Of a stretch of DNA of 64,000 bases, positions 7,471-64,000 are shown one piece after another. The notes under the pieces are model-generated. The model was not told the DNA's origin. It saw only the letters and a list, made by a program, of their open reading frames with translations, and made no database searches. How positions within the stretch are numbered: the first letter of the stretch is position 1; each line of letters starts with the position of its first letter. The stretch is from Megaustenia siamemsis (taxonomy: Eukaryota; Mollusca; Gastropoda; Stylommatophora; Ariophantidae), in NCBI GenBank assembly GCA_032433765.1, contig JAVIAB010000124.1:90375911-90439910 (forward strand). The letters run 5' to 3'. Made by a program: the position numbers and the translations under genes.

Positions 7471-7852
7471 AATATATCTAATGTTAGATTGGCACCGAAA
7501 ATAGAACAGTTTTGTTCAATTCGAATGTTCAGACGAGAATGTGATTTTTATCTCGGGGCAAAAACATCAACGTCTGGTTTGTCAAGATCAAACTTTGCCT
7601 CCATTGCTTTCCAATGACCAATTAGAGCTAAACCTTTCTATTTTTTTACCATCCACACATTTTTATGGGGTTATTTGGTGAGCGCTTCTCTTGTGGCGTT
7701 ATTTTTACTAAAAGAAAGGAACACATTTGAAGCGGTGCACCTAAGATCTGTCAAATGAGATCAAACCTAAATTCGTGTCCTTATTACTATTGTCCATTAT
7801 TCGATTAATTCAATGTGACACATTGATTTATCTTTAGATTTATAAATAAATA

Positions 7853-7856
<4 letters not shown>

Positions 7857-7892
<36 letters not shown>

Positions 7893-7895
7893 ATG

Positions 7896-7929
<34 letters not shown>

Positions 7930-7966
7930 TGTATATATATACATATATACATATATACATATATAT
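7857..7966. repeat. Imperfect (TA)n microsatellite with TG interruptions
   Basis: An AT/GT alternating tract directly upstream of receptor exon 1. The paralogous tract before gene 2 is 36782-36857, so the microsatellite predates the duplication and has changed length since. Confidence 0.95.
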
Positions 7967-8046
7967 GCGTGCTTGTGTGTAATATGATCAAAACAATGTT
8001 TCAGTTTTGCTCTGATATAAGTTAAAATAACAATTGTAAAACAACA

Positions 8047-8221
8047 ATGTCATCAGAAGGAGGTACCATAATAAGTGATTATGCAGTGATATTTTTTTCA
8101 TGGTTTACATTTGGTGCAGTCTGTCAATTAATTAACGTATTTGGTATCGTCACAAACATTATCAACATTATCTGCTTCATAAAACAAGGTTTTGAGGATT
8201 CAGTGAATGTCACTCTGTTAG
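8047..8221 (+). CDS. Receptor gene 1, exon 1 (N-terminus and TM1)
   Basis: The ATG at 8047 starts a 58-residue segment with a short N-tail and one strong hydrophobic helix. The exon ends in CTGTTAG followed by donor GTATAT at 8222. The frame runs on into the intron to about 8265, but the paralogue has the same splice point and diverges beyond it. A (TA)n tract lies about 80 bases upstream; no clear promoter was seen. Confidence 0.85.
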
Positions 8222-11200: not shown

Positions 11201-14200
11201 GGTCATATGTTGGACATGTGATGAGAAGAGATAATAACCGAATAGGAAAGCAAGCCCTCATGTGGGAAACAACAGGTAAGAGGAAAAGAGGAAGACACAG
11301 AGAGACACTGAGAAGAACATTGATTAGAGAGGCAAGAGCAACAGGAATTGGCTCCCTTAATGAGATGGAGTTGTTTGCACAGAACAGAGACAAATGGCAA
11401 GATTTGATAAAATATATTTAATAAAAAATTGAAGACTGCTAGAATAAACATGTAGATAAGAGAAGGAATATCTTGGTTTACGCCCTATGGGCCGGCTACG
11501 GCTCGAAAGGTCAATAGATAGAAAAACTACACAAGCGAATAGATATGCACAGGAACATACATATTACATATTTGATGTTCACAGTAAGATCTTCAGCAGG
11601 CTACTCTGAACATTCCACCATTAACTCACGCTCCCCCCCCCTATTTTTCATCACATATATGGACAATGTATGCAAATTAGCATGCCCAAGCAAATGAATT
11701 ATACCAACAAGGATGATAACAAGAGATAACACACAGGGGAACGAAATATACGTACAAGAAAGCAGCAGAAGAGACAAAGTAAACGAAATACTATTTGCAG
11801 ACAACCAAGCACTAATACATGAAACTGAGGGCCTGCAAGAACATATCAACAGGCTTAACAACATTTGTAAACAATACAACATGGAGATCAATATAAACAA
11901 AACCGAAGTAATGGCAATAGCGAGAAAGAAAGAAAAACTAAACAGCATAATAGATAATACGACTCTAAAGCAAATAGACAATTTTAAATATATGGGTAGC
12001 ACGTTAACACGAGACAATAACCAAGAGACAGGGATAGAGATAAGGCGTAACAAAGCATGCCAAGTTATAGGCCAAGTATCAACACTATTGAAAAACAACG
12101 CAATAACTACAGAAGCAAAAAGGGCAATATACAAATCAATGTTTCTACCAACTTTGTGCTATCAGTGCCAGAAATGGACGCTGGACTCTAGAACAATAAG
12201 AAAGATAACGACCACCGAAATGATTGTATCAGAATAATGACAGGAAACAGCTTACTGGACAGATAAAGAATGACTGACTTGAGGACTAAACTCGAAATTG
12301 AACCAGCCACCTAATGCATAAATAAACAACAGATAGATTGGTTCGGGCACATAACAAGACAAATAGAACTAACAATGTCTCATAGAGCCATAAACAAACG
12401 CTACGAAAACGCCAGATTAACAGGAAGATTGAGAAAGAGATGGATAGATAGAATACAAGTCTCTAGGAGGGATACCATCAAATGAGGGTCACAGAAGAGC
12501 AAAGAATCACAGATTGTATCTCCCCTCGACGCCAACAGCAATGGAGGAAGGATAGAAGAAGAAAAAAGATGCGCACAGACTGTATTCTAGAGAGTAACTA
12601 GTTTTATGTGAGCACGACATTTTAATTCAAATTCATGTGTTACAATATGTCATAATTGTTACATTAACAACAAAACAACATTCTTCTCACTTCATTCAGG
12701 TTTGGCTGTTTCTGATCTGGTCAGCCTAATCACAGCGGTCTGGACGTGTATTAGCTTTACCCCTGCATTTGTGGCAGCTGAGCTGGATTTCGACCCCAGC
12801 GAAGTCTGCTACTTGACATCAGCAATGATACATTTTTCCTTCACTCGAGTCAGCGGTTGTTTGACGGCCATGATTACTGTAGAGAGATGTTTATGCATAA
12901 CAAGTCCTTTAAAGGTTGTACATTTTATGTCGACATTTTACGAAAATACATCAATAACTTGGTACAAATAATTGATAACAAATATAAGTTTTGGTTTGTT
13001 TTAATTTAAAGTACAAGTATTACATTAGTGCAGCGATATATATCAGCACAATTAATAATACTTTTTTTCAGTTGTAATGATATCAATAGGGGGCAAGGGT
13101 ATATTCGTAGACTAAGATGGGTAGGCCGCGTAAGAAGAATGTCAAATAATTGTATACATAAACAAATATTGCATGGTGAACTTAAGAACTGTAAAAGAAC
13201 AAAGGGGTGATCGTAGCACATGAAGAACAACAATAATGGCAAATCACCATTTGAGGCACTGTTGATATCAAATTTAGAAGACAAAAAACGCAGGAGAATA
13301 TATACGAGAACAGTCACCACGTGTTCATCGTGTTCGTTCTCTTGCCGGATCTGTCTATGCAATATTGACATATATTCAGCCACGACAGAAACTACTCATC
13401 AAAGCAGCATCCAACATAAAACATTAAATTTTGTACCAAACTACAAGATTATCATGATTATTTGCTACCAAACGTCTGTGAAGACGCCAAAAGCCACGTA
13501 TAAGAGAATGATTGCAATTTTACATTTTCTTTGTATCAGAAGATTTAAGAACCGTAGCATTCCTTAATTCACTTCTCTCTCAAAATGTGAAAGCAGTAAA
13601 GTAAGACATTTGTACTAATACATTTAATCTTTATTAACTTTGATGTGTATAATACAATTGATGGTCCAACTATTTCAGAAGTTGGATATGAACTGTGTGG
13701 ATTTGTACTTTGTTTAAACATATGTAACCTTCAGCATCATCAAGTAACGGTCCTGCTGGCATAGGTGATCATGTCTCTCCACAACTTTCGATCCCGACAG
13801 TTATTTATCATTTCTGTTGTTGACCTTCTGCCAAGCCATTCTCTTAAGCTGTCTGTTATTTTTCCTCTTTGCTTCCCTCTATCTCTTCGTCCCTCAATTT
13901 TTCCAGTTGTTACAATATATTCCAGTTGTTTTCCTATCATTACATGGCAAAAAAAATGATGATTGTTTCTTCCTAATATTGGAAATTAGCTCTCTCTTTG
14001 CTTTGACCTCTTTCAGAACATTTTCATTACTCTTCTTATATGTCCATGGTACTCTCAACATTTCTTCCTTAAAGGACCCTTATTGACCTGTTCTGCTAAC
14101 CTCATAAACTCCTTCCACATCATAGTAATTGAAGACATTGAGAACGATCACAGACCGATAGTAACCAATTAGTCACTAAAACACGCACAAATATAGACAA

Positions 14201-37124: not shown

Positions 37125-40100
37125 GTATGTACATAACTCCCATTATTATTTGAACATTATTCATAAATAAAAATGTATGTTTAATATAAACAATTAATGT
37201 AATTGTGTTTAACATACATATTTTGTAATCATGCAGTGATCGATAAGGGACATTCTGATGAAACAATTTCTTAGCTTTAGGTTCAAGATGAATACTTTGT
37301 TGATTCCTGGAATGGTAGCTAAGTAGATATGGGGGTTTTCCGACTCCAGTTAAATCATTCCATTCTAAAGTCTCAAGTCATTTACACTGTTGGATCTGTT
37401 CCTCGGAGCTCGTAGGCTACCTAAAATTGGGGATGCCAAAATGGAGCGTTTCTTGGAGCAGCGCATGTCGAATAAGAAATGAACACATAATTGGAGCGAT
37501 CATTCACACACTGAATGTACTCGTGCGAAAAAAATCGAATTTGACCAGAGGAGCACAGTAACCCACATCGACGCTGACAGGCAAATCAGGGAGGAAAGTT
37601 CAGTAACCTGTCATGTACATTCAATTAAATTATTAAAATGTTCATCGACAATAAATGCACGGTCATAGTTATATCTTCCTTGAAGATCAAAATGCACACG
37701 AAAGCGAGCGTACAGATACATCATTTGAGAAACTATGATCATTTTCATGGGCATGTTTAACATAACTAATTTGAGTTTAATTGACACAGCAGTAAAATAA
37801 AAATAAAAGCAGCAGGATTAAAATATATTCAACTAGATACATATAGGGATTATTGTATCCGCCTAATACATATATGTTATGTTTAAAACTGTATTAATTT
37901 TTCATAACTAGTACTCTCAAACTATTTTTATACTTTAATCAAGAGTTGTGTTGTCAGTTTGCCATCGACCAATGTTTAAGACAATGTATTTGGTAGATTT
38001 GTTGATGGGAGTTACATGATAAGAACTAGTTTGACCTAGTCCGGAGATGTTGGTGGGAGGAAAGAATGCCTTAGTAAGTAAAGGTAAAAACATGCAAGTT
38101 TCTGCCTGTGAAACAATTATTGGACATTTGATTCAAGGCAGACATTGTTTATCGGAAAAATAAATATCTACGAAACACAAAGTTGATGTTCACAGCATCA
38201 TTTGTTAGACAAAGTCAATTGTTGATTTTGTTCCCGCAACATCACTTCATGTTGTCAGAAAGATCCAGAAGAAGCAAGACTGTCTACTCGTCTAAACCAT
38301 TACCTGAATATACATACTTTCATTAATGGATGCTTGCGCAGAATAAAAGGATGGAAATGGCAGGACAAAATCACTAACATAGAATTATGGAAAGGTACCA
38401 GTCAAACACCAGTGGATAAAGAGATACAGCGAAGACGATGGCGCTGGATTGGACACACACTACGGAAGCCAACTGAGAGTATTACACAACAGGCCCTTTT
38501 TTGGAATCCCCAGGGGAAAAGACAAAGAGGAAGACCAAGGAATTCTTGGAGAAGACAGATCGAAGCAGAGATGAAGATGATGGGGAAGACATGGAATGAT
38601 CTTAAAATAATGGCAAAAGACAGAACGACGTGGAAAGTGTTTGTTGAAGACCTATGCTCCACTGGGAGCTAAAAAGGTAGAAGAAGAAGTAGAAGAGAGA
38701 AGAAACCATTACCTATTCGTGTTACTAACGTTATAATTTCTTTCTTTTTTTTCAACGAATTGTGCAAATGTTATTATGAATTAAATGGAAACATATTAAT
38801 ATTACTGTTGATTATTATAGTAAGTAAGTAAGTAAAGTACCCCTGTCACGCCAAGTAGCGTATAGGGAAATGTGGTGTTAGTGACCCTATATTTTACAGA
38901 CTTTCAGCACATGATTTTTGGGGTAATGTGGTCGGTATTACGCCCGTGCTGCTTTACTTTCCCAGAAAAATCCGGTACCCATTTAAGGCTGGGTGAACCC
39001 GGAAGTCGTCGGTTGGCATCGAACCCTACCCCTTGTCCTTTGTAGTCCAGTTCACTAACCACTGAGCTATCGCGGCTCCCTTGTTGATTATTATGATAAA
39101 ACTAATATGTGATCTCTATCCTAAACACCATCGCTTCCTGTTTCTATTATTTATTATAATATAAAATAACCAGCCGATGACCGCTATTTAAAACGAAAGA
39201 TATTGCCTGTAAACATAGCTTCATTGGCAGCACGTAGATCTGTTTATCATGAAAAGTGATGGGTTTTTTTTATACTGAAGATAAAAAAAATTTCACAAAT
39301 AAAGGTATCTCCCTTGATAATATTTTCACTCATTTTCTTTTATAGATTTCTTTTCAGTTTGCAGTGACGGTTTGTTATTATTATTGGACACTATCGTTAT
39401 CTCTTATTTTGGACCATGAAAATATACTTCCACCACTACTCACACACTGAGAAAATAGACAAATCATGTTTTCATTTATACCAATTACAGTTCAAATATA
39501 GTTATACTTGAAAAATAAATTATTAGTGTCAGGTGTATTTGGTACATTACACAATATACTGTTTTATTCGTTAATTTTTTTATTTACACCACCAGATTAA
39601 AAGTATTTTTTTTCCATTAAGCAAAAGAAAAAAGATATACCTCTTTATCGTTCGCTACAAATTTCAGTAAGCCATTAACAACACAAGCGAATGTACAGGA
39701 CAATAACGTTCCATATTTGACGCGAACATATTATATTCTAGAGAGTAATTAGATTTATGTGAGCAGAATCCGAAATCTTATTTTAAATTCATGTGTTACA
39801 ATATGTCATAATTGTTACATTAGCAATAAAACAACATTCTTCTCACATCATTCAGGTTTAGCCATTTCTGATCTGGGCAGCCTAATCACAGCAGTCTGGA
39901 CGTGCATTAGCTTTAACCCTGGAGTTCTAGCAGCTGAGCTGGATTTTGACCCCAGCGAAGTCTGCTACTTGACATCAGTAATGATACATTTTGCCTTCAC
40001 TCGAGTCAGCGGTTGTTTGACGGCCATGATTACTGTAGAGAGATGTTTATGTATAACAAGTCCTTTAAAGGTTGTACATCTGATGTTGACATTCTAACAA

Positions 40101-41777: not shown

Positions 41778-43531
41778 CTGAATGTTGAGTGAATATTTGA
41801 TCCTATTTTTGCACACCAGCAGCCAAGTGCTAGGGTTTCCCACGCCATGCAGGCAGGTATTCTCTGATTTCAAAAATGGTCTTATTTTATCGTTGAGCGA
41901 TTTACCAATTTTGGTGTATTTTTAACTTATTAAATTTCCCCGGGCCGCGGCTATTCTTAGCCTAAATTGTTTTTGATTTTCATCTACCAAGAATTATTTA
42001 ACGTTCGCAGAATGAGCACGTGACTTCCTTTTCTCACAGTTTTCCTAGGGACACTGGATGTCAATACCCAGAGTCCCACCGCCTGTGATAAGAATCGATC
42101 ACCAGACCTAATTGTTCAGGTCAACGTCTAGATCACAAAGCCCTCTTTGTCTATGCGAACACATTTTAAACAGATACGTTACGGGTGATTGTCTTGATTG
42201 TTTTGGTTGGAGCTTTTTTTTCTTTGTCACGGATGACAACTATTTCCCTTACGTTGTATGGAATGGTGACACACGTACTGTTTATTTTCATGCTGTCATC
42301 ATGCATTAAGATCAATAAAAAACAAAATTATGGTTTTCGAAAACAATCAAATTTATCGCAGAACTCCAGGTGGCGTACAGGGAAATAATACATGATATTC
42401 GGTATATCTATTGAACTTTAGTCAACACAACGAAGTTGTTGTATATCTTTCACGGTTAAATAAATATGGTATCAGTTTAAAGATTTATAAACCTCAAAGC
42501 CGCAGATTGAAATCGCAACTGTCTTTCTGTCCTAAATGTACAAGTCGCGCCACATCTTATGTGTTCTCTATGGGGAGTCATTATTACGTTTTCCTTTCTT
42601 TGGTAAATCTGTTATATTGTTAGATCGTTGTAGTTTTCATAGTACTTTTATATCTCTTACTCGGACTGTGGAAAGATATACTTCTTTGTATGTCTCGCTT
42701 TTGAGCGTGCATAACATACACGGTGTGAATCGTACTCTATAAATAATGCAGCAAAGACAATGAGAACCTGACATTTTGTTAGAGATGAACAGTTATTGAT
42801 TTTCTTTTCCAGTTTGTCTTATATCTTTTCTGGTATTCAACATTTTTGCACAATTTAACACTTTTACATATTTAGATGAAAATAAATGAATCAATAAATG
42901 TTCAAACATGTTAATTATTTACTCCATTCAGGTAAAAAACATCATCACATCAAAACGATCGGCCGTGATCATAGTTTGCTTGTTCATTATCTTCGTCTTT
43001 AGTGGTGCTCCAGTGTACGCTGTCAACAGATTGGACATGAAGTTTTCTGCATACAGAAACAGAACTATTTATGGCCTTGTATCAACGGAGAATCGAGAAA
43101 ATGTTGAGAAGTTTACTTTTGCTATCAACAATTTTGTCATTCCATTTGGTGCCTTTGTAATCATCGTTGTGTGCACGGTAATACTTTCATTTAAATTACG
43201 AAGATCAACAAAATGGAGACAGAAAACAATCACCAGTACACAGGTTGACAGAGTTTCCAACCGGAACCTGAAAACAGCCACGATGGTTGTGGTGATTTCC
43301 ATTTTGTTTATTGTTTGTTTTGTTCCAATAAGTGTTATTGTTCTTGCAGCGGGACTGATACCAGAATTATCACTAAATGGTAAATACATGAAGATATCAA
43401 CACTCATTGGTGGCATGGGTCACATAATGGAGAGCGTCAACTCATCAATGAACATTTTTATTTACTATCACATGAGCAGCAGGTATAGAGACAATTTTCT
43501 TAACATATTTATAAACACAAGAATCGAGTAA
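36950..43531 (+). CDS. Receptor gene 2: class A GPCR, candidate chemosensory receptor; join(36950..37124,39856..40070,42932..43531)
   Basis: The paralogue of receptor gene 1. It has the same three exon lengths (175, 215, 600), the same intron phases and the same 329-residue product, and no lesions were seen. Motifs match: GIVTN in TM1, LAISD in TM2, TVERC at the TM3 end, FIVCFVP in TM6 and NIFIYY in TM7. Substitutions cluster in extracellular-side parts and loops, for example FNPGVLAA for FTPAFVAA after TM2, and GLIPELSLNG for GLIPELYING before TM7. ECL2 again has no cysteine. The ligand is unknown. Introns are shorter than in gene 1 because fewer transposons landed in them. The ATG at 36950 is chosen by alignment with gene 1; the longer open frame begins inside the (TA)n tract and is not credible. 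Confidence 0.87.
38306..38702 (+). mobile_element. RTE-like LINE, 3' fragment with perfect 12-bp target duplication
   Basis: The frame at 38334-38672 reads RRIKGWKWQDKI, RRRWRWIGHTLRKP and GKRQRGRPRNSWRRQIEAE and is almost identical to the end of the 45.78-48.87 kb element. AAACCATTACCT occurs at 38294-38305 and 38703-38714, exact. The tail is rich in GAAGAA. It sits in intron 1 of gene 2 in sense direction. Confidence 0.93.
38819..39081 (-). mobile_element. tRNA-derived SINE, copy 5, perfect 13-bp target duplication
   Basis: A minus-strand copy. The tail side has a TAAG/AGTA repeat at 38820-38836. The head ends at 39080 in GGGAGCCGCGATAG on the minus strand. TGTTGATTATTAT flanks it at 38806-38818 and 39082-39094, exact. 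It is in intron 1 of gene 2. Confidence 0.93.
39856..40070 (+). CDS. Receptor gene 2, exon 2
   Basis: Acceptor ATCATTCAG ends at 39855; donor GTTGTA starts at 40071. It encodes TM2 to the TM3 end, with LAISDL, SEVCYL and TVERCLC. Length is 215 bases. Confidence 0.89.
40228..40820 (+). mobile_element. LINE family E fragment, split by a LINE family B 3' end
   Basis: The left part reads RWIGRVRRIANN and KQILHGELENGQRTKG, paralogous to 13075-13235. The right part resumes at about 40723 (CTCGCCGGATCTGTCTAT). Between them, 40546-40720 is a minus-strand LINE family B 3' end with an ATCATCATCATC tail. ACCACAAAT and ACCACGAAT flank the family B piece, a likely 9-bp target duplication. Copy 1 at 13.3 kb is not split. 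Confidence 0.7.
41130..41440. repeat. Intron 2 block shared with 2930-3225
   Basis: See the 2930 entry. It is not found in intron 2 of gene 1, so either gene 1 lost it or copy 2 is closer to the unit at the left end here. Confidence 0.65.
41731..41773. repeat. (TA)n microsatellite
   Basis: A pure TA run in intron 2 of gene 2. Confidence 0.97.
42932..43531 (+). CDS. Receptor gene 2, exon 3
   Basis: Acceptor CTCCATTCAG ends at 42931. The exon covers TM4-TM7 and the tail and ends with TAA at 43529. A candidate AATAAA polyadenylation signal is at 43603. Confidence 0.9.
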   Translation, partial: VKNIITSKRSAVIIVCLFIIFVFSGAPVYAVNRLDMKFSAYRNRTIYGLVSTENRENVEKFTFAINNFVIPFGAFVIIVVCTVILSFKLRRSTKWRQKTITSTQVDRVSNRNLKTATMVVVISILFIVCFVPISVIVLAAGLIPELSLNGKYMKISTLIGGMGHIMESVNSSMNIFIYYHMSSRYRDNFLNIFINTRIE

Positions 43532-55020: not shown

Positions 55021-55170
55021 TAGTATTTACAAATTATGATGTTCTATTTCTATTTGTCTGATAGTTGTTCTTGTCATAAACTTATCATATATTTCTGCAC
55101 TGTTATAAACCAATATATATTTATCACACGAACACAAAATTAATCAGTACATGCTCATTATTTTGTAAAT

Positions 55171-55768
55171 AGGGTAAAGAACATCATTACTTCAAAAAGA
55201 TCTGCAGTGATCACAGTTTGTGTATTCATTACCCTCTTTATTAGTGGTTCCCCAGTGTACATTGTCAACAGCTTGGGTATGAAGTTTTCTGCATCGAGAA
55301 ACAGAACTCTCTATAGCTTTTTATCAACGGAAAATCGAGAAGATGTTGAGATGTTTACATTCGCCAGCAACAACTTCATCATTCCATTTGGTGCGTTTGT
55401 GATCATCGTTGTCTGCACGGCAATACTTTCATTTCAGCTACGAAGATCAACAAACTGGAGACAGACAACAACCACCAGTACACAGGCTGACAGAGTTTTC
55501 AGCCGTAATCAGAAGACAGCCACATTGGGTTGCTGTTATTTCTATTGCTATTATTGTTTGTTTTGTTCCAGTTAGCGTTATTATTCTTGCAATTGCATTA
55601 TCCCCATAAGTGACGTTGAATGGTAAATACATGAGGATATCGATAGTAATTGGTGGCATTGGTTACTTGACGGAGAGCATAACCTCATTAATTAATATTT
55701 TTATTTACTATCAAACGAGTAGTCGGTATAGAGACACTTTTCTCAACATATTTAGAAACAAGAAATAA
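55171..55768 (+). pseudogene. Receptor exon 3 relic (third paralogue)
   Basis: It aligns end to end with exon 3 of both receptor genes (VYIVNSLGMKFSASRNRTL, FIIPFGAFVIIVVCTAILSF). Breaks: the acceptor reads ATAGGGTA where the genes have CAGGTA; one extra G at about 55530 shifts the frame after KTAT; a TAA follows IALSP near 55607. No exon 1 or 2 was found upstream in the 11.6 kb back to gene 2. The expected receptor product is therefore lost. Confidence 0.9.
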
Positions 55769-55989: not shown

Positions 55990-57480
55990 AAAAGTTATAA
56001 CTATAAGGCAAAGCATAAAGAAAGGCATACAAGAAACTTCCGACATCTTACTCAAAAAACAAAAGAACAGAAATAAATGTATAACTGACGCCACTTTGGA
56101 AAAAAAAAAATTAAAGAATGAAATCAACCGAAGAACACTACCTATTACAGCAAAATTGATAAGGAAATACGCAAAATGTGCAAAAAGGCAAAATAAGACT
56201 CACTCAGCTAAAGATGTCTAGAAATCGGAACTATGGAAAATAAACAAGATTTAAGAGGGATGCACACATAAATAAAGAGAATGACTAGCAAAAATTAAAG
56301 GCAAAAGAAAGTGGATATTTATAAACAACAAAAAAAAAGAGAATGCTAATAGACAACACAGTTTTAATCAATAGACGGCCAGAATATGTAATATCATTTT
56401 ATGACGAAAGGGAAAATAAACCAATGTTAAAATGTACATTATTATATAAATTCTTACAAATCGGAAGTGGAAAAAGCTATACACACAATGAAAATAGAAA
56501 AGCTGCAGGACGTGACAGCATACAGATCGAGATGGTGAAGGCACCAGAAAAATGTTGGTATTGACGTGATCACAGATTTATGCAACGACATATCCCAAAC
56601 AAAGTGCATACCAAATGAACTAAAAACAATAACAAAAATCTTGCTGAAAGTTATACAAGGAAGGTTTCATTATACAACCATATTGAATTAGATGAGGAGA
56701 TGGAAAAAAACAGTGGGACGTAAGAATAACAATATAAGAACAACAATTTTGATTTAGGAAAACAGTGGGACAAATGAAGCCATATTCAATAACCTAAGAT
56801 ATGATGACGATACATTACTAGCAGAACATCCTAGCCTAAAGATCTACTACAACTGCTTAATACAAATAAACATGACAAGCAACGAGTATAGATTATATAT
56901 GAATATCAAAAAAGACTAAAACTATGATCACAAACAAAGATAATACTAAAAACCTATAAATGGATATCAAATTTGAAGGAAAAGACCTGGAGACAGTTGA
57001 GAGCTACAACTAACTTGGACATATTATAACCAGTGATGGAAAATGTAAAGCGGAAATAAACTAAAGAATAGGAATGACAAAAAATAATTGTAATGTCATG
57101 AAAAATGTATAATCATCAAAACAAATAACAACGGGGCTAAAACTAAGAATAGCAAAATGTTATATCTTCTCAATATTGATGTATGGTGCAAAAACATGGG
57201 CATTACACAATAAAACAGAACATACAATTGAAGCCTTTGAAATGAAATGTGGATTTATAGAATAATGTGAAGAATTGGAAGAGGACTACTAAACACAATT
57301 CAAACAATACAAATGAGATGTTTCGAGCATGTTAAACAACACAAGAACCTATTGAAAGCAATCTTGGAATGGAAAACATAAGATAAAAACGGCAGAAACA
57401 GACTAAGGCTAACATGGACGAGTAACATAAAAAGATGAACAAGTCAGCCTATGACAACCTGCACCACCAATGCAAGAGCA
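55990..57480 (+). mobile_element. LINE family B, decayed copy, interrupted at its 3' end
   Basis: Plus-strand words in order: KEIRKMCKKAK, NKQDLRGMHT, GRDSIQIEMVKAPE, and the ESYN-LGHIITSDGKCKAEI-like stretch near 57000, then LRLRIAKCYIF and MYGAKTWALHNKTE-like text at about 57190, and LRLTWTSNIKR at about 57405. The expected 3' end continues after CCTATGACAACCTGCACCA at 57448, but the sequence departs from the family by about 57480-57505, where the GC-rich element begins. Confidence 0.82.
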
Positions 57481-57505
57481 GCAGCAGAGGGACGCGCTGG
57501 ACTGT

Positions 57506-58400
57506 GGGTGGGTATCTTTTTTCGCACCGCCCGCCCGAATAAGCCCCCCCAGAGGTGCCCGCTGCTGTTGCCTCTGGGAGCACGCCCGGTGCGAAAAAGA
57601 TACCCCCCCAGAGGTGCCCGCTGCTGTTGCCTCTGGGAGCACGCCCGGCCGAATAAGCCCCCCCAGAGGTACCCGCTGCTGTTGCCTCTGGGAACACGCC
57701 CGGCCGAATAAGCCCCCCCAGAGGTACCCGCTGCTGTTGCCTCTGGGAGCACGCCCGGCCGAATAAGCCCCCCAGAGGTACCCGCTGCTGTTGCCTCTGG
57801 GAGCACGCCCGGCCGAATAAGCCCCCCCAGAGGTACCCGCTGCTGTTGCCTCTGGGAGCACGCCCGGCCGAATAGCCCCCCCCCCCCAGAGGTACCCGCT
57901 GCTGTTGCCTCTGGGAGGTCCAACGCACGCGGCTGACTGCCCACGGGCCGGCGCGGTGGGTATCTTTTTCGCACACGCCCGGCCGAATAGCCCCCCCCCC
58001 CCAGAGGTACCCGCTGCTGTTGCCTCTGGGAGGTCCAACGCACGCGGCTGACTGGCCCACGGGCCGGCGCGGTGGGTATCTTTTTCGCACACGCCCGGCC
58101 GAATAGCCGCCCCCCAGAGGTACCCGCTGCTGTTGCCTCTGGGAGGTCCAACGCACGCGGCTGACTGGCCCACGGGCCGGCGCGTTTCTTCTCAAGGTGA
58201 GCTATTTGGCGCTTAGTGAGCCCCAGGGTATCGTCGCCATGAAGTATCTTTTTCGCACGCCCGGCCGAATAGCCCCCCCCCCCCAGAGGTACCCGCTGCT
58301 GTTGCCTCTGGGAGGTCCAACGCACGCGGCTGACTGGCCCACGGGCGCGTATCTTTTGTCTCACGCCCGGCCGAATAAGCCCCCCCAGAGCTACCCCGCT
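57506..58400. repeat. Composite 55-bp / about 115-bp tandem array with hairpins
   Basis: CCCGGCCGAATA recurs at 57644, 57699, 57754, 57808 and 57863 (steps 55, 55, 54, 55), then at 57978, 58094, 58260 and 58366 (steps 115, 116, 166, 106). Every unit has CCCAGAGG, a 15-base loop, CCTCTGGG. The long units add GGTCCAACGCACGCGGCTGA and GGTGGGTATCTTTTTCGCAC. C runs vary from 6 to about 11. The 166-base step carries an extra piece at about 58188-58250. By position it looks like a terminal or subterminal repeat of the element. Its long minus-strand frames (up to 306 residues) are repetitive read-through, not genes. Confidence 0.95.
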
Positions 58401-58530
58401 GGCGCCCTCTCATGGGTACCACTTTGCTAGCCCCCGCCACCCCTATTATTTCAGAAGGAGTTTAAACGTCTAGCAAGGATTGAAATTGGCAATTAGTTAA
58501 ATGTGAACTTATGAATATACCAAACTCAAC

Positions 58531-59718
58531 ATGTTGCATCATGAGCGAGCGCTCATACTCCGAGCTGAATATGAGCGAGAGACGGGTGTTCGCCCCCCTT
58601 ATCCAAGGTCAGGTCTGGCTCTACAGGATCTGGCAGACAGGCTGGCCCAACATCGGGCGCAGAGCATCTTGGACTGGCCCATCCCAAAGGATGTAAAGAA
58701 GAGGCTAGCGAAGCCTCTGATCCCATCGCCCGGGAAGGACCTGCGATTTAATGATCTGGATGTGGTGGTACCTCACCCTATCCCACTCCCAGTGGGAGAG
58801 CCGTGGGTTGATCTCATTGCCCAGGCCAAGGAGGAGTTAGAAGTAGACGGTGCCGTTCGCACTTACTCTACATGGTGTGTAGAGAGGGCGGAGGACGACA
58901 AAGATGTCTGTACTATGACTGACGAGAGGGCAGCAAGGCTCATTCAATATTTCCCGTGGGGTAGGTCCCTTTGTAAGATCAAATTTCTCAGACAGGCTTG
59001 GAACAGCAATGTAAAAGAACCCGAGGAGGAGTGGGTTATCAGAGATAAATTTGACCCGATTAAATTGGAAATCAAAAAGGGGGGTGGTATTGTCGAGTTT
59101 TCTCGGGATATGAAGCCTGGCGCGCTAACAGGGATCGACAAGCCGTATTACGAAAAAGGTTATCCAGAGTCCGCGGTCGTGTACGGTCTCTACCAGATCC
59201 GAGACCCAGACCCTGCCAATCTAGCACCGCTGCGCGACGGTGACTTGAACTGTGTTGCTCAGAGTGTGATAGCGCACTTTGAAGACGCTCTTCGAGGACA
59301 AGGGTTAACACCCACCAGACGGCAAAAAATACGGGATTGGGAGGAACGAGTTCGTAGACCCGGGGCCACGATCAATGATGTGGCTGAACTGGAAAAGATC
59401 CTCAAACGAGCCATCATCTTGCGGGACATAGCCGGTGGGATTATATACTGCAGCGGCAAGTATCAAAACGGGCACCGCAACATAGAGCTCATCGTTCACA
59501 ACGGCCACGCGTGGAGTAAGGACCTACAATTCCCGCTTAGCAGGGAGGTCCACTTCTACGAGGGTGGCATTGTGGACGCCATCAGAGAAGCCACCCAGGG
59601 TGCGCCGGTTGCAGTCTGGCTTCTGGGGGTTCCTCGGAAGGGCGGCTCGCCGTCGACCAGTTTGTTCTTCAAGACGGTCGAACATTTAAGAAGCGTACAG
59701 ATCACGACAAAATCGTGA
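58531..59718 (+). CDS. Element polyprotein, N-terminal part: uncharacterised region plus possible OTU-like domain
   Basis: 395 residues from ATG 58531. The first 200 or so have no motif I recognise. Around 236-241 the text DGDLNC, followed by a helix-like VAQSVIAHFEDALRG, and HNGHAW at 323-328 recall the Asp-Cys and His boxes of OTU-type cysteine proteases; this is a weak, motif-only suggestion. No DxE exonuclease signature is evident. After AVWLLG (about 365) the frame becomes a short non-conserved tail, while the +0 frame of the next piece is already open. The real product probably continues into the polymerase through the G5 run at 59625-59629. An upstream ATG at 58512 is in another frame. 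Confidence 0.8.
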   Translation: MLHHERALILRAEYERETGVRPPYPRSGLALQDLADRLAQHRAQSILDWPIPKDVKKRLAKPLIPSPGKDLRFNDLDVVVPHPIPLPVGEPWVDLIAQAKEELEVDGAVRTYSTWCVERAEDDKDVCTMTDERAARLIQYFPWGRSLCKIKFLRQAWNSNVKEPEEEWVIRDKFDPIKLEIKKGGGIVEFSRDMKPGALTGIDKPYYEKGYPESAVVYGLYQIRDPDPANLAPLRDGDLNCVAQSVIAHFEDALRGQGLTPTRRQKIRDWEERVRRPGATINDVAELEKILKRAIILRDIAGGIIYCSGKYQNGHRNIELIVHNGHAWSKDLQFPLSREVHFYEGGIVDAIREATQGAPVAVWLLGVPRKGGSPSTSLFFKTVEHLRSVQITTKS

Positions 59719-60923
59719 CGGCTTGTGAACGCCTGGCCAGTGAGGTGTCATTTGATGATACTGACTTGGGTGATCCGGAGTCGCTCGCCAGACGGTGTTT
59801 CAGTGACAACCACGCATCCAACCTCGTCGCTGTTAAGAAAAACGGATGGAGGCCGACCCCAGCAAGCATTCTCGGTGATGTGCAAAAGGCTTGCGTGGAA
59901 CACGGGCACGGTGGGCTCTGGAATTCGATGGACTACACCCTAAAAGATATCGTCTGCATCGACATGAAGGAATGCTACCCCGCCAGCTTCCTAGGCAATG
60001 GCGAGGCTGCGCCATGGTTCCAACGGTTTGGACATCCGGGCCACCGCATGACCAGGGTCAGCATCAATGGTCCTCTCCCCACCGACATAGGCACCGGCTT
60101 CGCTGAGGTCCAAGAATGGGTGTGGACAGACAACTGTCATCCTGTCATACCTGCCTGGTACGGAAGACATTTCGCGGAAAAGAGGTGGGCCCCGACGCCG
60201 CTGCTGGCCTTCTTTGTAGAGACCGGCTTGCTTGTCCATCTCAGAGTCAGAGAGGCCCTGCTGGCCTTCGAGAAGCAGGAAGAGGTCTGGCTGCCAGAAG
60301 GTCGCGATGTCCGCTGTGCAATCATCGGCAAATTTACACAAGGGAGGAAAGCTGGCTGCAAAAGGTTGACCCGCAGGCTAGTGACTGACCAGGGGGAGCT
60401 CGACTACCTGGTTCGCGACACGATGCAAAGTGGCACTCTGGTCGGAGCTCCAGAGAAATTCCCTCTAGGGTGGATACTTACATATCACGACGGCAGCCAG
60501 CCTCAGTACGCGCATCTACGCGCCAGCATGTTGGCCTACGCCCATATCAACCTCGTCACAATGCTGGTCAGATTTGATCCCACAGAGGCCGTCCGGGTCG
60601 CCACTGACAGCATATATCTCAAGAAAACGGCGCTGCATAAGCTCGAGGGGGTCGAGGCATACGTGCCGAAAAATAAACCCGTCAAGGCACCCTGCTATTG
60701 TAATTGCATTTGGCACCCATCACACAGCAACGAGGGTGCTGTATTACCTCGGTGTGATTGCCAAAAAAGCAAATGTGACAACTGCAAAGAAGGTGGGATG
60801 GTGATGCTTCCTCCAACAGTTGGCCCGGCCCAGTGGCGCGACAAGGGCGAGAGGCTGTACGAGCCTAAGGAGCACGCTGCCTACCTTCCAAAGCCCGAGT
60901 ACATCAGCCAGTATGACACTTAG
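59628..60923 (+). CDS. Element polyprotein, middle part: divergent family B DNA polymerase
   Basis: This would copy the element's DNA. The frame is open well before its first GTG at 59715 and has no ATG there, so it reads as a continuation of the preceding piece. Counting from 59715, palm motif A is IDMKECYPAS (D83), a motif-B-like GKFTQGRK lies at 205-212, and motif C is VATDSIYL (T297-D298-S299). Family B enzymes normally have DTDS there; the metal-binding second Asp is kept and the first is Ala. After motif C comes a Cys-rich insert (CYCNCIWH, CDCQKSKCDNC), likely a zinc-binding loop. The frame ends in TAG 60921-60923, and the helicase follows in the same frame. The overall pattern suggests a protein-primed-type polymerase; that is inference. 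Confidence 0.8.
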   Translation, partial: GSSEGRLAVDQFVLQDGRTFKKRTDHDKIVTACERLASEVSFDDTDLGDPESLARRCFSDNHASNLVAVKKNGWRPTPASILGDVQKACVEHGHGGLWNSMDYTLKDIVCIDMKECYPASFLGNGEAAPWFQRFGHPGHRMTRVSINGPLPTDIGTGFAEVQEWVWTDNCHPVIPAWYGRHFAEKRWAPTPLLAFFVETGLLVHLRVREALLAFEKQEEVWLPEGRDVRCAIIGKFTQGRKAGCKRLTRRLVTDQGELDYLVRDTMQSGTLVGAPEKFPLGWILTYHDGSQPQYAHLRASMLAYAHINLVTMLVRFDPTEAVRVATDSIYLKKTALHKLEGVEAYVPKNKPVKAPCYCNCIWHPSHSNEGAVLPRCDCQKSKCDNCKEGGMVMLPPTVGPAQWRDKGERLYEPKEHAAYLPKPEYISQYDT

Positions 60924-60935
60924 GTCCTGTCAATT

Positions 60936-62492
60936 ATGGAGAATAGCGCAGCGCCACGCTACGACGACCCACTGTCGAGACATCGATTCTGTTACCTGAA
61001 TGGCGGAGGCGGCTCCGGCAAGACAACGAGAGCGATCGAGCTGTTTCGTGACAGAGATCCCATCGTGTTTACTCATACCCATCGTCTGGCCAAAGAGATG
61101 CGGACCAGGGGGGTTAAATCACAGACCTACCATAGCTTCTTCCGTTGGTGTGGGACGCGGAGAGCTAAGGCAACTGCGGAGGACCTAGCAGTGCTGCAGA
61201 AAAAACACAAGAGACCTATTACAGTTTGGAAGGCAAAAAAGGATTGGACTTCTACAGATGAAGTGTTGCTGTCTATAGGGGGTGCGGGAGAGGTTATAGA
61301 GTTTGTTTCCCGAAAACAAGGGGAATCTCTCCATGTACCTGGAAGTAATCAGAAAGGTCCGCAGATTGCAGATGTTGACTGGACGCCTGAGCGCATGGGC
61401 GACAAATACATTCCCCGTGTCATCATATGGGACGAAGTCTGCACTGTGTCAAAGCCTATCCTGGAGTTGTTCCTGGGGTGGCTCGATCAACGTGGGGTCC
61501 AGGTCATATGTTGCGGTGATCAAGGCCAGCCGCCACCGATCGCTGGTGGCATGCCCCATGACTGGCTACAGGAAACCTGCGGCTACTACGAAGAGATTTC
61601 CGTCGACCACAGAGCGAAAGACGAGGAGCTAAAAGCTCTGAAAAGGCGTATCCGGCTTCAGTCTGACAAGGTCCAGTGCGAAGAAATGCGTAAGGCCCTC
61701 CCAGGCTGCCTCGAGTGGAATAGGTTTGTTAAAGACTGGACGCCAAGAGATCTTATACTGGTCTCACGCACCAAGGTCCGCGATCGGGCACAGACGCTCT
61801 TATTCCAGCGGCATAAGGAGCAGTTCCAAGATGTCCCTGTGCCTCTGCTGTATCACCCCAAGGACAGCAGGAAGCAAAATATTGAGGTCCTCATACCTGG
61901 AACAGAAAACAAGGAAGTGCTCGTACTCAACGATGTTGTAGAGGTATCGATAGCTGCAGCTGAGAGTGCTATCACGACTGATGATTGGCGCCTGGGCTAT
62001 GCCTTGACGATCCATTCTAGCCAGGGTCTTACCATCTCTGACCCACAGAAGGTCTGGATCATTGACGACTGGCTTACGTGGTCCAACCTCGTGTATCTGG
62101 GTGTCTCTCGGGTGGAGTATAGTCACCAGCTCAAACGGGTGGGGTGTCCGCCGGCCGAGGCAGCCGCAGATGTAATCGATTTGACAGCACAGTACATGCC
62201 TGTGCGCGCAACAATATCGAGGAAGCTTTTTAGTTATAAGAGTCTAGACCAGGCAAAAGGACTTCCTGGGTTTGACCTAAAAGTTGACTACATATTGCAA
62301 CTTCACGAGGCCCAAAAAAACCATTGCGCTGCATGTAACTGTCTAATGTTGTGGTCGTATCGGCCGGCTGATATGCAGCAGTTTAGCGTCGATCGGCTAG
62401 ACAACAGCAAGGGCCACTGCGTAGGAAACATACGGCTGACCTGTCTGGACTGCAACCGAAAAAGAGGGGGCGCAGCACTTATCGCCGCCTAG
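60936..62492 (+). CDS. Element polyprotein, C-terminal part: superfamily 1 helicase with HNH domain
   Basis: 518 residues. ATP-driven DNA unwinding is expected. Walker A is GGGGSGKT (23-30), Walker B IIWDE (D166, E167), motif III GDQGQPPPI (194-202), motif IV region LILVSRTKVRD, motif V/VI YALTIHSSQGLTI and VYLGVSRVEYSHQL. The HSSQG form is that of the Pif1/RecD branch (SF1B). The last 60 residues are an HNH-type module: CAAC (464-467), VDRLDNSKGH, GNIRLTCLDCN (C503, C506). The usual first His is replaced by Arg, as in some phage-type HNH domains. The frame is the same as the polymerase, 12 bases after its TAG, so the helicase was probably fused to it. No ribosome-entry logic for a separate start is visible. 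Confidence 0.9.
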   Translation: MENSAAPRYDDPLSRHRFCYLNGGGGSGKTTRAIELFRDRDPIVFTHTHRLAKEMRTRGVKSQTYHSFFRWCGTRRAKATAEDLAVLQKKHKRPITVWKAKKDWTSTDEVLLSIGGAGEVIEFVSRKQGESLHVPGSNQKGPQIADVDWTPERMGDKYIPRVIIWDEVCTVSKPILELFLGWLDQRGVQVICCGDQGQPPPIAGGMPHDWLQETCGYYEEISVDHRAKDEELKALKRRIRLQSDKVQCEEMRKALPGCLEWNRFVKDWTPRDLILVSRTKVRDRAQTLLFQRHKEQFQDVPVPLLYHPKDSRKQNIEVLIPGTENKEVLVLNDVVEVSIAAAESAITTDDWRLGYALTIHSSQGLTISDPQKVWIIDDWLTWSNLVYLGVSRVEYSHQLKRVGCPPAEAAADVIDLTAQYMPVRATISRKLFSYKSLDQAKGLPGFDLKVDYILQLHEAQKNHCAACNCLMLWSYRPADMQQFSVDRLDNSKGHCVGNIRLTCLDCNRKRGGAALIAA

Positions 62493-62494
62493 CC

Positions 62495-62576
62495 GTCCTC
62501 CGGACGGGTAAAAGCCTCGCGCAGCGAAGGGATTCAGTCGTCCTCCGGACGGGTAAAAGCCTCGCGCAGCGAAGGG
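62495..62576. repeat. Direct duplication, 45-bp period, between convergent genes
   Basis: A 37-base unit at 62495-62531 recurs at 62540-62576 with the internal palindromes GTCCTCCGGAC and TCGCGCAGCGA. Copy 2 overlaps the end of the minus-strand DUF2314-like gene, so copy 1 looks like a tandem duplication of that gene's last codons. It could also act as a transcript-end structure for both sides; that is unproven. Confidence 0.9.
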
Positions 62577-62831
62577 TATATATCGTATATATGCTTCCCC
62601 TGAAATTTGATAAGGTCCCCGCATTTGCCAGCCTTATGGTTTAGTAGTTTATTGTCAATTACACCAGTAAACTCCACCTCAGAGGCCTCACCCCTCCACC
62701 CAAAATCGCTCCTCTCCGTTGCATACTTTTACGAAGTCACCGCAATTCAGTACCAGAAGCTCTTTATCGGGTGGGACCCAAAATGTGTCTGGGTTTCGAC
62801 GATGCATCCCTTGGGCATCTATTAAGTTCAT
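62534..62831 (-). pseudogene. DUF2314-like small protein gene, frameshifted
   Basis: Starting at ATG 62831 (29 bases after the integrase stop), the frame reads to GDFVKVCNGEERFWVE and then meets TGA at about 62690. In the neighbouring frame the text resumes at once with EFTGVIDNKLLN and CGDLIKFQGKHIYDI, stop at 62534. The shift lies at the G4 run (62691-62694). The two halves together have the layout of DUF2314 proteins (G-D-x-V-K...ERFWVEV...TGV-D-N...GD-I-F...DI), about 98 residues, function unknown. No known role in transposition. It could be a real mutation or a base-call error in a homopolymer. Confidence 0.6.
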
Positions 62832-62859
62832 TGTAGAAATATTCTTCAGCGGCAAGTGT

Positions 62860-63963
62860 TCAATTGAGGACCCCATCTGAAGGAAGCTCTGTCCCCTCAG
62901 GAACAATCATCAACTCTTCACGCACAAACCCACGCTGTGGACCATCTTCCAAATAGTATACCGCAGGCTGGCCATTCTGCCGCAATACATTTCGGATCGA
63001 ATGCAGGGTCACAGACCACACGGGGTCAGTAGCACGTTTTCGACCACCCTCGAGCTCGCCAGGCTGGTACAAATACCGAACCATTGCATCAGACGGGATC
63101 AGCGGCTCCTCGAGCCCTACAGGGCGTCCTGGAACGACAGATGAGGGTTGCGCAGTCACTCTCTGAAGTTTAATGGCATCCACAGGCTTCTTACCTGTCA
63201 GCCGAGTCGGCTCATTGTTTAAAGCCGCAACAACCGCAGGGAGTCGAGCCACCCATTCTGCAGACCGCTCAGAAGACCCACGGGCAGCAAGCAATAGCTC
63301 CTGAGCATACTGGTGTCCAAAAAGCCGCTCGGCCAGAGTCCGGTTAAAACGTTCTACTATACCTTGGTCTCTATGGAGGTCCACACGCCCACGCCGTATT
63401 TCAGTCCCATGTTTTGCCATAAGTGTTGATACCGAGCCCATGAATTCTCTTCCCGGGTCGACCTGAAGAAGCTTTGGAAAAACTAGAGGGCCCCGTTTAT
63501 AAATCCTCTCAAGGGCGTCTGCAACCTCTTGTGAATCTTTTGTAGCCAAGGGCTCTGCCTCTTTGTACCGGGAGGCTATATCGACGAGGGTCAAGGCGTA
63601 TTTGTACGTGCGTCGTTTCACACGATCATGCGGCAGATATAATAAATCCCCTTGATGAACTTCGTTTGGCGCAGTCACGTTAAAATGTGGCCGTGGTATT
63701 CGTCGAGGAGCAGGCAAATAGAGCTGCCATATGTCTTGTTTCGAGAGCCAGTCCCGAGCATCCTTTTTGCTAACTCGGGCTGCCGCAGCAAGCTTCGGGA
63801 TGGCCGCCAGCCCACGCCAATAGCCTTGAGGACTGTAGTAGAATTTCTCCATGATTGCTGACGTGCCGTCGGACTTCTCTGCCATAGAAAACTTCTTCAG
63901 TTTAGGATATTTTCTTCGCGACTTTTTTTTAAGGCCCATCCCGAAGCGTGATTTCGCAGCCAT
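62860..63963 (-). CDS. Retroviral-type DDE integrase (rve), possibly 5'-incomplete
   Basis: 367 residues from the first visible ATG at 63963. It inserts the element's DNA into the host. The catalytic triad is D106 (VHQGDLLYL), D169 (VDPGREF) and E204 (GIVERFNRT), with 34 residues between the last two, the classical D,D-35-E spacing. ALNNEPTRLTGKKPVDAI follows, as in rve cores. The C-terminus has YYLEDGPQRGFVREEL, compatible with a small beta-barrel or chromo-like domain. The N-terminus is very basic (GMGLKKKSRRKYPKLKK). The frame is open from the ATG to the window edge at 64000 with no stop, so the start may lie outside. It faces the polymerase unit, head-on. Confidence 0.92.
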   Translation of the reverse strand: MAAKSRFGMGLKKKSRRKYPKLKKFSMAEKSDGTSAIMEKFYYSPQGYWRGLAAIPKLAAAARVSKKDARDWLSKQDIWQLYLPAPRRIPRPHFNVTAPNEVHQGDLLYLPHDRVKRRTYKYALTLVDIASRYKEAEPLATKDSQEVADALERIYKRGPLVFPKLLQVDPGREFMGSVSTLMAKHGTEIRRGRVDLHRDQGIVERFNRTLAERLFGHQYAQELLLAARGSSERSAEWVARLPAVVAALNNEPTRLTGKKPVDAIKLQRVTAQPSSVVPGRPVGLEEPLIPSDAMVRYLYQPGELEGGRKRATDPVWSVTLHSIRNVLRQNGQPAVYYLEDGPQRGFVREELMIVPEGTELPSDGVLN

Positions 63964-64000
63964 AATCGCAGAAACCGTCTTAGCATCACGCTTTTCCCAG

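What the first reader, a model, noticed from the sequence alone, without database searches (positions are those of the whole stretch)
57490..64000. Unusual self-synthesising element: polymerase, SF1 helicase and HNH in one coding unit with a retroviral-type integrase
Polinton/Maverick elements are known to carry a protein-primed PolB and an rve integrase as separate genes along with capsid genes. Here one coding unit of about 3.96 kb holds an N-terminal domain, PolB, SF1 (Pif1/RecD-like) helicase and HNH, and the integrase converges on it. A composite hairpin array sits at the left end. I do not know a named family with this exact layout, so it could be an undescribed class or a distant relative of Polintons and adintovirus-like elements.
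Basis: partly seen in the sequence, partly recalled or inferred. Interest (0 to 1): 0.92.

Follow-up and report, generated by a model that had tools for sequence, protein, structure and literature searches.

The report
Animal endogenous virus with swapped replicase
The window ends inside an 18-kb virus-derived element, one of many near-identical copies in a (likely animal) genome, that carries capsid genes and is predicted to copy itself with a fused polymerase-helicase known from protist viruses, a gene that sister copies with the same capsid have likely exchanged for another polymerase.

Summary
The host assembly (2.59 Gb) shows an 18,034-bp element (C123:90433390-90451423; window 57480 onward). 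Its hairpin array is a terminal inverted repeat, found inverted at the other end. Order: array, replicase, convergent integrase joined to a phospholipase A2 domain, packaging ATPase, penton-like protein, double-jelly-roll capsid protein, weak adenain-like protease, fibre-like protein, array. It is an endogenous polinton-like virus, not a capsid-less transposon. The window's replicase reads as three ORFs; in 12 sister copies, chosen for long open frames, it is one 1,325-1,381-codon frame. A likely vOTU domain, pPolB-type palm (ATDS motif C), SF1 helicase and C-terminal HNH match the published "Tlr1-like" pPolB-S1H layout (PMC11071308). Seven of eight copies examined have 5-6 bp target-site duplications; the window copy has none. 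Capsid matches: 97 scored, 94 without stops, 97-100% identical. At three of four capsid loci fetched for lacking this replicase, a DNA_pol_B_2 polymerase lies in its place; at one of these the adjoining backbone is 94% identical. Known kind, new variant: Tlr1-type replicase in a likely animal host, with replicase exchange.

The parts
57480..58448 (.). Left terminal inverted repeat of the element: tip 5'-AGCAGCAGAGGG, then a composite array of about 55-nt and about 115-nt units with 10 exact copies of one stem-loop
   Evidence: Inverted copy at C123:90450339-90451423 (L011:7339-8423): 95.3% over 935 bp, and 84.7% over 886 bp out to the tips; tips; one unit folds at -18.4 kcal/mol
58179..58245 (-). 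67-bp antisense fragment of the element's own p165 gene captured inside the terminal repeat
   Evidence: 100% identical to L011:2007-2073 and present in both terminal repeats of this element; not found at other places in L012-L031
58531..59718 (+). Replicase piece 1 (ORF1): variable N-terminal part, alpha/beta domain in the place of a terminal protein, likely vOTU domain
59233..59508 (+). Likely vOTU-type cysteine protease domain (ORF1 residues 235-326; conserved Asn240-Cys241 and His323/His326)
59715..60923 (+). Replicase piece 2 (ORF2): pPolB-type palm with motif A DMKECYP and motif C ATDS
   Evidence: Model of relative P0147 matches phi29 DNA polymerase, 2pyj_B E 2.6e-5; A, D and S of ATDS invariant in 20 of 20 aligned relatives, T in 90% or more
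60936..62492 (+). Replicase piece 3 (ORF3): SF1B Pif1/RecD-like helicase and C-terminal HNH
62250..62471 (+). HNH / endonuclease VII-like domain at the C-terminus of the replicase
   Evidence: phrog_1035 endonuclease VII 7.5e-12, residues 439-512
62491..62576 (.). Two copies of a 41-nt palindromic repeat between the convergent genes; near here the homology with an element carrying another polymerase begins
   Evidence: D4
62860..64000 (-). Integrase gene, cut by the window end; in this copy one 534-codon ORF (to C123:90440374) with DUF5679, phospholipase A2-like and rve domains; the rve protein proper starts at about 63852
   Evidence: rve 5e-10, Phospholip_A2_4 5.4e-8, DUF5679 2.9e-12; D106, D169, E204 invariant in 15 of 15, second D and E at a spacing of 35

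Best explanation
The window holds the left part of an integrated 18-kb polinton-like virus that carries capsid genes, is predicted to copy its linear DNA with a self-primed polymerase-helicase (the 'Tlr1-like' pPolB-S1H replicase with a likely vOTU domain and an HNH domain) and likely inserts by a retroviral-type integrase. Shown: element borders, terminal inverted repeats, gene order, near-identical copies, 5-6 bp target-site duplications at seven of eight copies examined, purifying selection on the replicase among selected open copies, and, at one locus read on both sides, the same backbone next to a different polymerase. Inferred: the vOTU domain would cut a terminal protein from the replicase; initiation would occur at the repeated AGC-AGC tip by jumping back, as recalled for adenovirus CATCAT ends; the helicase would stand in for the missing exonuclease or strand-displacement partner; DNA would be packaged by the A32-like ATPase into double-jelly-roll particles; the two ends of one element would be copied from each other; and whole replicase cassettes would be exchanged between elements by recombination near the palindromic repeat that separates replicase and integrase. 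The window copy itself has a broken replicase and, if it moves at all, would need enzymes from sister copies.
For: Borders and repeats. Tip AGCAGCA at 16 of 16 ends of 8 elements (ends were located by a loose match to this motif, so partly by construction) and TSD 5 bp in 6 of 8, 6 bp in 1 of 8. Ends of one element resemble each other (first 150 bp 95.3-100%) more than ends of different elements (mean 88.7%; 4 of 56 comparisons reach the lowest within-element value). A 67-bp internal fragment sits in both ends of the window element only. Capsid PF21738 3.7e-57, ATPase Pox_A32 6.7e-9, PLA2 5.4e-8. Replicase. One open replicase frame in 12 of 12 other fetched copies (chosen for long open frames), palm 98.5-100% identical in 11 of 12. 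dN/dS median 0.276 over the 43 of 66 pairs with dS above 0.03. Capsid: 94 of 97 scored matches without stop. Swap: DNA_pol_B_2 in L038, L039, L040; in L042, which adjoins L038, integrase 98.8%, ATPase 95.5-96.7%, penton 95.7% identical to the window element.
Confidence: 0.8

Rival explanations
1. A capsid-less self-synthesising transposon: a new class with one replicase and one integrase.
For: The window alone shows only these genes, and Polintons without a detectable capsid gene, one in Rhizophagus, were described (PMC7805220, passages).
Against: The same element continues with a double-jelly-roll capsid gene, ATPase and other virion-like genes before the inverted array; 94 of 97 scored capsid matches are free of stops.
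Confidence: 0.03
2. An ordinary animal Polinton/adintovirus with a standard exonuclease-bearing pPolB.
For: Capsid set, size, rve integrase and TSD fit; some sister elements do carry a DNA_pol_B_2 polymerase.
Against: No Pfam DNA_pol_B_2 match in ORF1, ORF2 or any of 20 relatives; SF1 helicase and HNH follow the palm in one protein; motif C is ATDS. TSDs are mostly 5 bp rather than the 6 bp reported for vertebrate Mavericks (PMC8097293, passages).
Confidence: 0.1
3. Misassembly or contaminating DNA joined to the host contig.
For: Sharp change in base composition at 57480; the window copy has no TSD.
Against: Copies lie on many large contigs; seven of eight copies examined are flanked by TSDs.
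Confidence: 0.02
4. Remnants kept by the host, for example as a reservoir against giant viruses or other elements, rather than a virus still spreading.
For: PLVs are reported to act so in protists (PMC12220804, start of abstract in a search listing); many near-identical copies; several copies have broken integrase frames.
Against: Purifying selection on the replicase and TSD-flanked insertions at scattered sites fit spread by their own enzymes.
Confidence: 0.1

Closest known systems
Tlr1 element of Tetrahymena thermophila and other PLVs with the 'Tlr1-like' pPolB-S1H replicase
   Same: Likely vOTU, palm lacking the first Asp of motif C, SF1 helicase, C-terminal nuclease (GIY-YIG in Tlr1, HNH in others), rve integrase, capsid set (as described in PMC11071308 and PMC12721341)
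   Different: Likely animal host; C-terminal nuclease is HNH; PLA2-like domain next to the integrase; composite hairpin arrays as terminal repeats; sister elements carry another polymerase. Relationship not tested by a tree
Polintons/Mavericks and adintoviruses (animal)
   Same: 16-18 kb, long terminal inverted repeats, rve integrase, double-jelly-roll capsid, ATPase; tip made of a repeated short motif as in vertebrate Mavericks
   Different: Replicase is pPolB-S1H-HNH rather than a DNA_pol_B_2-type PolB; TSD mostly 5 bp
Transpovirons
   Same: pPolB-S1H replicase by published description (PMC11071308)
   Different: Linear plasmids of mimivirids without the capsid genes
OmPLV of Oxyrrhis marina
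   Same: Endogenous PLV with helicase and pPolB in one protein
   Different: There the helicase is N-terminal and the exonuclease is kept (PMC12721341, section 15)

Membership tests
Polinton-like virus / Polinton supergroup | Double-jelly-roll major capsid protein | tested here: met
   PF21738 DJR-like 3.7e-57, L011:567-1865
Polinton-like virus / Polinton supergroup | A32/FtsK-type packaging ATPase | tested here: met
   PF04665 Pox_A32 6.7e-9, above its cut-off
Polinton-like virus / Polinton supergroup | Penton / minor capsid protein | tested here: inconclusive
   258-aa protein near the capsid gene; PF19254 3.4e-4 below cut-off
Polinton-like virus / Polinton supergroup | Adenain/Ulp1-type protease | tested here: inconclusive
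   PF00770 0.0027, below cut-off
Polinton-like virus / Polinton supergroup | Long terminal inverted repeats and TSD | tested here: met
   Inverted repeats in 8 of 8 elements with both ends read, 5-6 bp TSD in 7 of 8
Polinton (Polintoviricetes) / adintovirus | pPolB with exonuclease domain | tested here: inconclusive
   No DNA_pol_B_2 match in 20 of 20 relatives; about 130-140 residues lie between the vOTU His and motif A in P0147 (numbering), which looks short, but exonuclease motifs were not scored
Polinton (Polintoviricetes) / adintovirus | rve integrase | tested here: met
   rve 2.4e-10; D, D and E invariant in 15 of 15
Adintovirus | Hexon recognisable by BLASTP to reference adintoviruses; integrase chromodomain | not tested
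   No reference sequences held
Tlr1-like pPolB-S1H replicase | vOTU domain with Cys and His before the palm | tested here: inconclusive
Tlr1-like pPolB-S1H replicase | pPolB palm with first Asp of motif C replaced | tested here: met
   phi29 polymerase match; ATDS, with A, D, S in 20 of 20
Tlr1-like pPolB-S1H replicase | SF1 helicase fused behind the palm | tested here: met
Tlr1-like pPolB-S1H replicase | C-terminal HNH or GIY-YIG | tested here: met
   phrog_1035 7.5e-12; match of P0147 to a SECphi18 endonuclease, 39.5%
Tlr1-like pPolB-S1H replicase | Common descent with Tlr1, TvV-S1 and transpoviron replicases | not tested
   Those sequences were not held; BFVD best match H6WBE3 is unnamed

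The most novel reading that the evidence does not exclude
One virus lineage spreading in an animal genome keeps a single capsid backbone while swapping whole replication cassettes, a Tlr1-type pPolB-helicase-HNH in some copies and a Polinton-type DNA_pol_B_2 polymerase in others, by recombination at palindromic repeats that punctuate its genome, so that 'Polinton' and 'Tlr1-type PLV' are interchangeable states of one virus rather than separate groups.
Probability: 0.45. Interest if true: 0.87.

Novelty: new variant of a known kind. Interest (0 to 1): 0.74.

Why it matters
The literature I read treats the choice of replicase, including replacement of one polymerase by another, as a key to the deep history of eukaryotic double-jelly-roll viruses (PMC11071308, passages). 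Here two replicases sit on backbones that differ by a few per cent inside one genome, so the exchange could be studied as a recent event, with breakpoints. It also places a Tlr1-type replicase in what is very likely an animal, with relatives named from molluscs, a coral, a shark assembly and Glomeromycota. Terminal arrays that hold internal DNA at both ends give a natural marker for how linear genome ends are copied.

Tried and rejected
Searches that gave nothing: IMG/VR scans with ORF3, A1, A2, A5, A6 and the capsid protein found no relative by the tool's confirmation. In annotated phage records the rows listed (20 of 35) are helicase or HNH pieces. The capsid protein has no PDB relative by sequence at E up to 1. 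Paper search for the accession H6WBE3: 0 papers. Literature searches that did not show this replicase in an animal element: of which I saw the listings and, for ten papers, passages or one section; two key papers (doi 10.1093/ve/vew019; PMC8502044) were not held.

Rejected: capsid-less transposon (capsid found); misassembly (TSDs, copies on many contigs); a conserved PLA2-integrase fusion (one ORF only in the window copy and L015 among 13 loci; separate frames in 10, split in L019). Equal contig lengths between replicase and integrase hits (for example 11702, 14105, 1512711) suggested pairing, but with so many lengths chance matches are possible, so I do not count them. Counts of open copies (31 places with an open frame of 1,325 aa or more and no stop in any listed piece) are my own reading of its table; the tool scored 83 of 169 candidates. 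For the capsid it scored 97 of 467, so absence of a replicase row near a capsid row is weak evidence; the swap claim rests on the four sites fetched.
Full report
What is in the window. Up to about 57480 the DNA is AT-rich (29-41% GC per 2 kb) with reverse-transcriptase fragments and 7TM receptor genes, so the host is very likely an animal (inference; the assembly is unnamed). From 57480 to the end it is about 54% GC. No Pfam or PHROG family matches ORF1 or ORF2 at E up to 1; ORF3 matches AAA_30 (5.6e-11) and, at its C-terminus, endonuclease VII-like HNH (phrog_1035, 7.5e-12); the integrase matches rve (2.4e-10).

One coding unit, broken here. Searching ORF3 gave 145 proteins with E up to 0.001, and a longer relative, P0016, gave 164. 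Many relatives are single proteins of about 1,130-1,390 aa. Of the 322 proteins held, 60 match all three window ORFs, and in 60 of 60 the three matches lie in the same order. So ORF1, ORF2 and ORF3 are pieces of one replicase gene, with a frame change between the first two and a stop between the last two. Named relatives come from Elysia, Sinanodonta, Desmophyllum, Scyliorhinus and several Glomeromycota, and from 'Thiodiazotropha' bins that probably hold host DNA (my inference).

The whole element. The host assembly became reachable (2.59 Gb, 155 contigs; window = C123:90375911-90439910). The left array L010:390-1358 has an inverted copy at L011:7339-8423 (95.3% over 935 bp; 84.7% over 886 bp out to the tips). 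The element is 18,034 bp. After the integrase, which lies with its PLA2-like domain on the minus strand, the listed genes lie on the plus strand: packaging ATPase (Pox_A32 6.7e-9), a 374-aa protein, a penton-like protein (258 aa), a 134-aa protein, the capsid protein (432 aa, DJR-like 3.7e-57), a 165-aa protein, a weak adenain match (118 aa, 0.0027), a fibre-like protein (328 aa, phage tail-fibre family 4.6e-15), and 257- and 196-aa proteins; a minus-strand ORF of 127 aa near the right end was not examined. The integrase ORF of this copy continues past the window into a phospholipase A2-like (5.4e-8) and a DUF5679 (2.9e-12) domain; in most other copies these are separate frames.

Integration. 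In 8 elements with both ends read, the tip is AGCAGCA at 16 of 16 ends (ends were found by a loose match to this motif); lengths are 16,305-18,034 bp; six have a 5-bp and one a 6-bp target-site duplication; the window copy has none. Within an element the first 150 bp of the two ends are 95.3-100% identical; between elements the mean is 88.7%, and 4 of 56 comparisons reach the lowest within-element value. Over 700 bp the contrast is weaker (17 of 56). Both ends of the window element carry the same 67-bp piece of its own p165 gene, not found at other places in L012-L031. I read this as end-to-end copying; the repeated AGC triplet would suit jump-back initiation by a protein primer (recalled from adenovirus).

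Copies and selection. ORF3 has 136 matches (83 of 169 candidates scored). The 12 further copies I fetched, picked for long open frames, each have one replicase frame of 1,325-1,381 codons; palm identity to the window is 98.5-100% in 11 of 12 and 84.3% in one, while integrase identity ranges from 80 to 98.5%. Their other genes are less whole: the integrase match lies in one open frame in 8 of 12, and ATPase or p374 matches are in pieces in several. Median dN/dS for the replicase is 0.276 in the 43 of 66 pairs with dS above 0.03 (range 0.146-0.372); closer pairs give noisier, often higher ratios. The capsid gene has 97 scored full-length matches of 467 candidates, 97-100% identical, 94 of 97 without a stop.

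Replicase exchange. By my reading, a number of capsid rows had no replicase row nearby. I fetched the replicase place at four: L038, L039 and L040 hold a different polymerase with DNA_pol_B_2 (6.5e-12, 1.1e-13, 2.7e-14), open over 1,017 and 1,255 codons in L038 and L040 and broken in L039; L041 holds only a tandem 85-bp array. L042, which adjoins L038, carries the same backbone: DNA 94.4% identical over 4,335 bp beginning at L010:5803, integrase 98.8%, ATPase 95.5-96.7% in two pieces, p374 88.5%, penton 95.7%, p134 99.3%. Upstream, L038 shares with the window element only stretches near the palindromic repeat that separates replicase and integrase (382 bp at 72%, and exact matches of 32-34 bp). 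The repeat is also found elsewhere in the element, including inside genes, and not in the 57,479 bp of window outside it; L039 and L040, as fetched, show no copy. Older elements tell a similar story: in L033 and in L001, a 5.1-kb contig filed under an Oligoflexia bin, a DNA_pol_B_2-type polymerase converges on the same integrase family, and in L032 such a polymerase shares 59% identity with the first 69 residues of window ORF1. Trees of palm and helicase put the window next to different relatives (P0149/P0179/P0151/P0187, support 0.9; P0007/P0152, support 0.99), which points to exchange inside the replicase too.

Verdict. This is an endogenous polinton-like virus of a likely animal host with a Tlr1-type replicase. 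The kind is known; the host, the PLA2-integrase neighbourhood, the hairpin terminal arrays and the replicase exchange on one capsid backbone make it a new variant. Steps of replication, packaging and exchange are inferred.

Noticed in passing
window 58179-58245; L011:7545-7611; L011:2007-2073: Both terminal arrays of the window element hold an identical 67-bp antisense fragment of its own p165 gene; it was not found at other places in L012-L031.
   Followed up: yes
L038, L039, L040, L042: Elements with the same capsid gene carry a DNA_pol_B_2 polymerase in the place of the window's replicase; the backbone was read only at L042.
   Followed up: partly
L041 (C106:27598300-27602299): A tandem array of about 46 copies of an 85-bp unit that includes sequence next to the replicase-integrase palindromic repeat; no ORF of 150 aa or more.
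   Followed up: no
L014 (C47:24148000-24157999): Two copies face each other: a left half ends near 6249 and an inverted copy follows; both replicase frames are open.
   Followed up: no
L019, oriented 7661-9440: An insertion of about 1.8 kb interrupts the phospholipase A2-like gene of one copy.
   Followed up: no
L011:2809-3795: Fibre-like protein with repeats matching phage tail-fibre families (phrog_2710, 4.6e-15) in an animal element.
   Followed up: no
L001 (JANQFH010000027.1): A contig filed under an Oligoflexia bin carries the integrase (76% identical) convergent with a DNA_pol_B_2 polymerase; probably eukaryotic contamination.
   Followed up: partly
database proteins P0002, P0011, P0017, P0245 and others: 'AAA family ATPase' and 'DDE integrase' proteins annotated in Candidatus Thiodiazotropha and Sedimenticola bins belong to this element family, likely host DNA in symbiont bins.
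   Followed up: no
window 12612-12971, 19983-20618, 39753-40097, 42890-43531, 55144-55575: 7TM receptor gene fragments that look alike by eye (two scanned: 7TM_GPCR_Srw 2.2e-13 for 42890-43531, 7tm_1 0.00024 for 12612-12971) among LINE fragments.
   Followed up: partly
P0159, P0178, P0181, P0183 and others: Glomeromycota relatives form a separate group in the trees; whether they have capsid genes was not readable.
   Followed up: no
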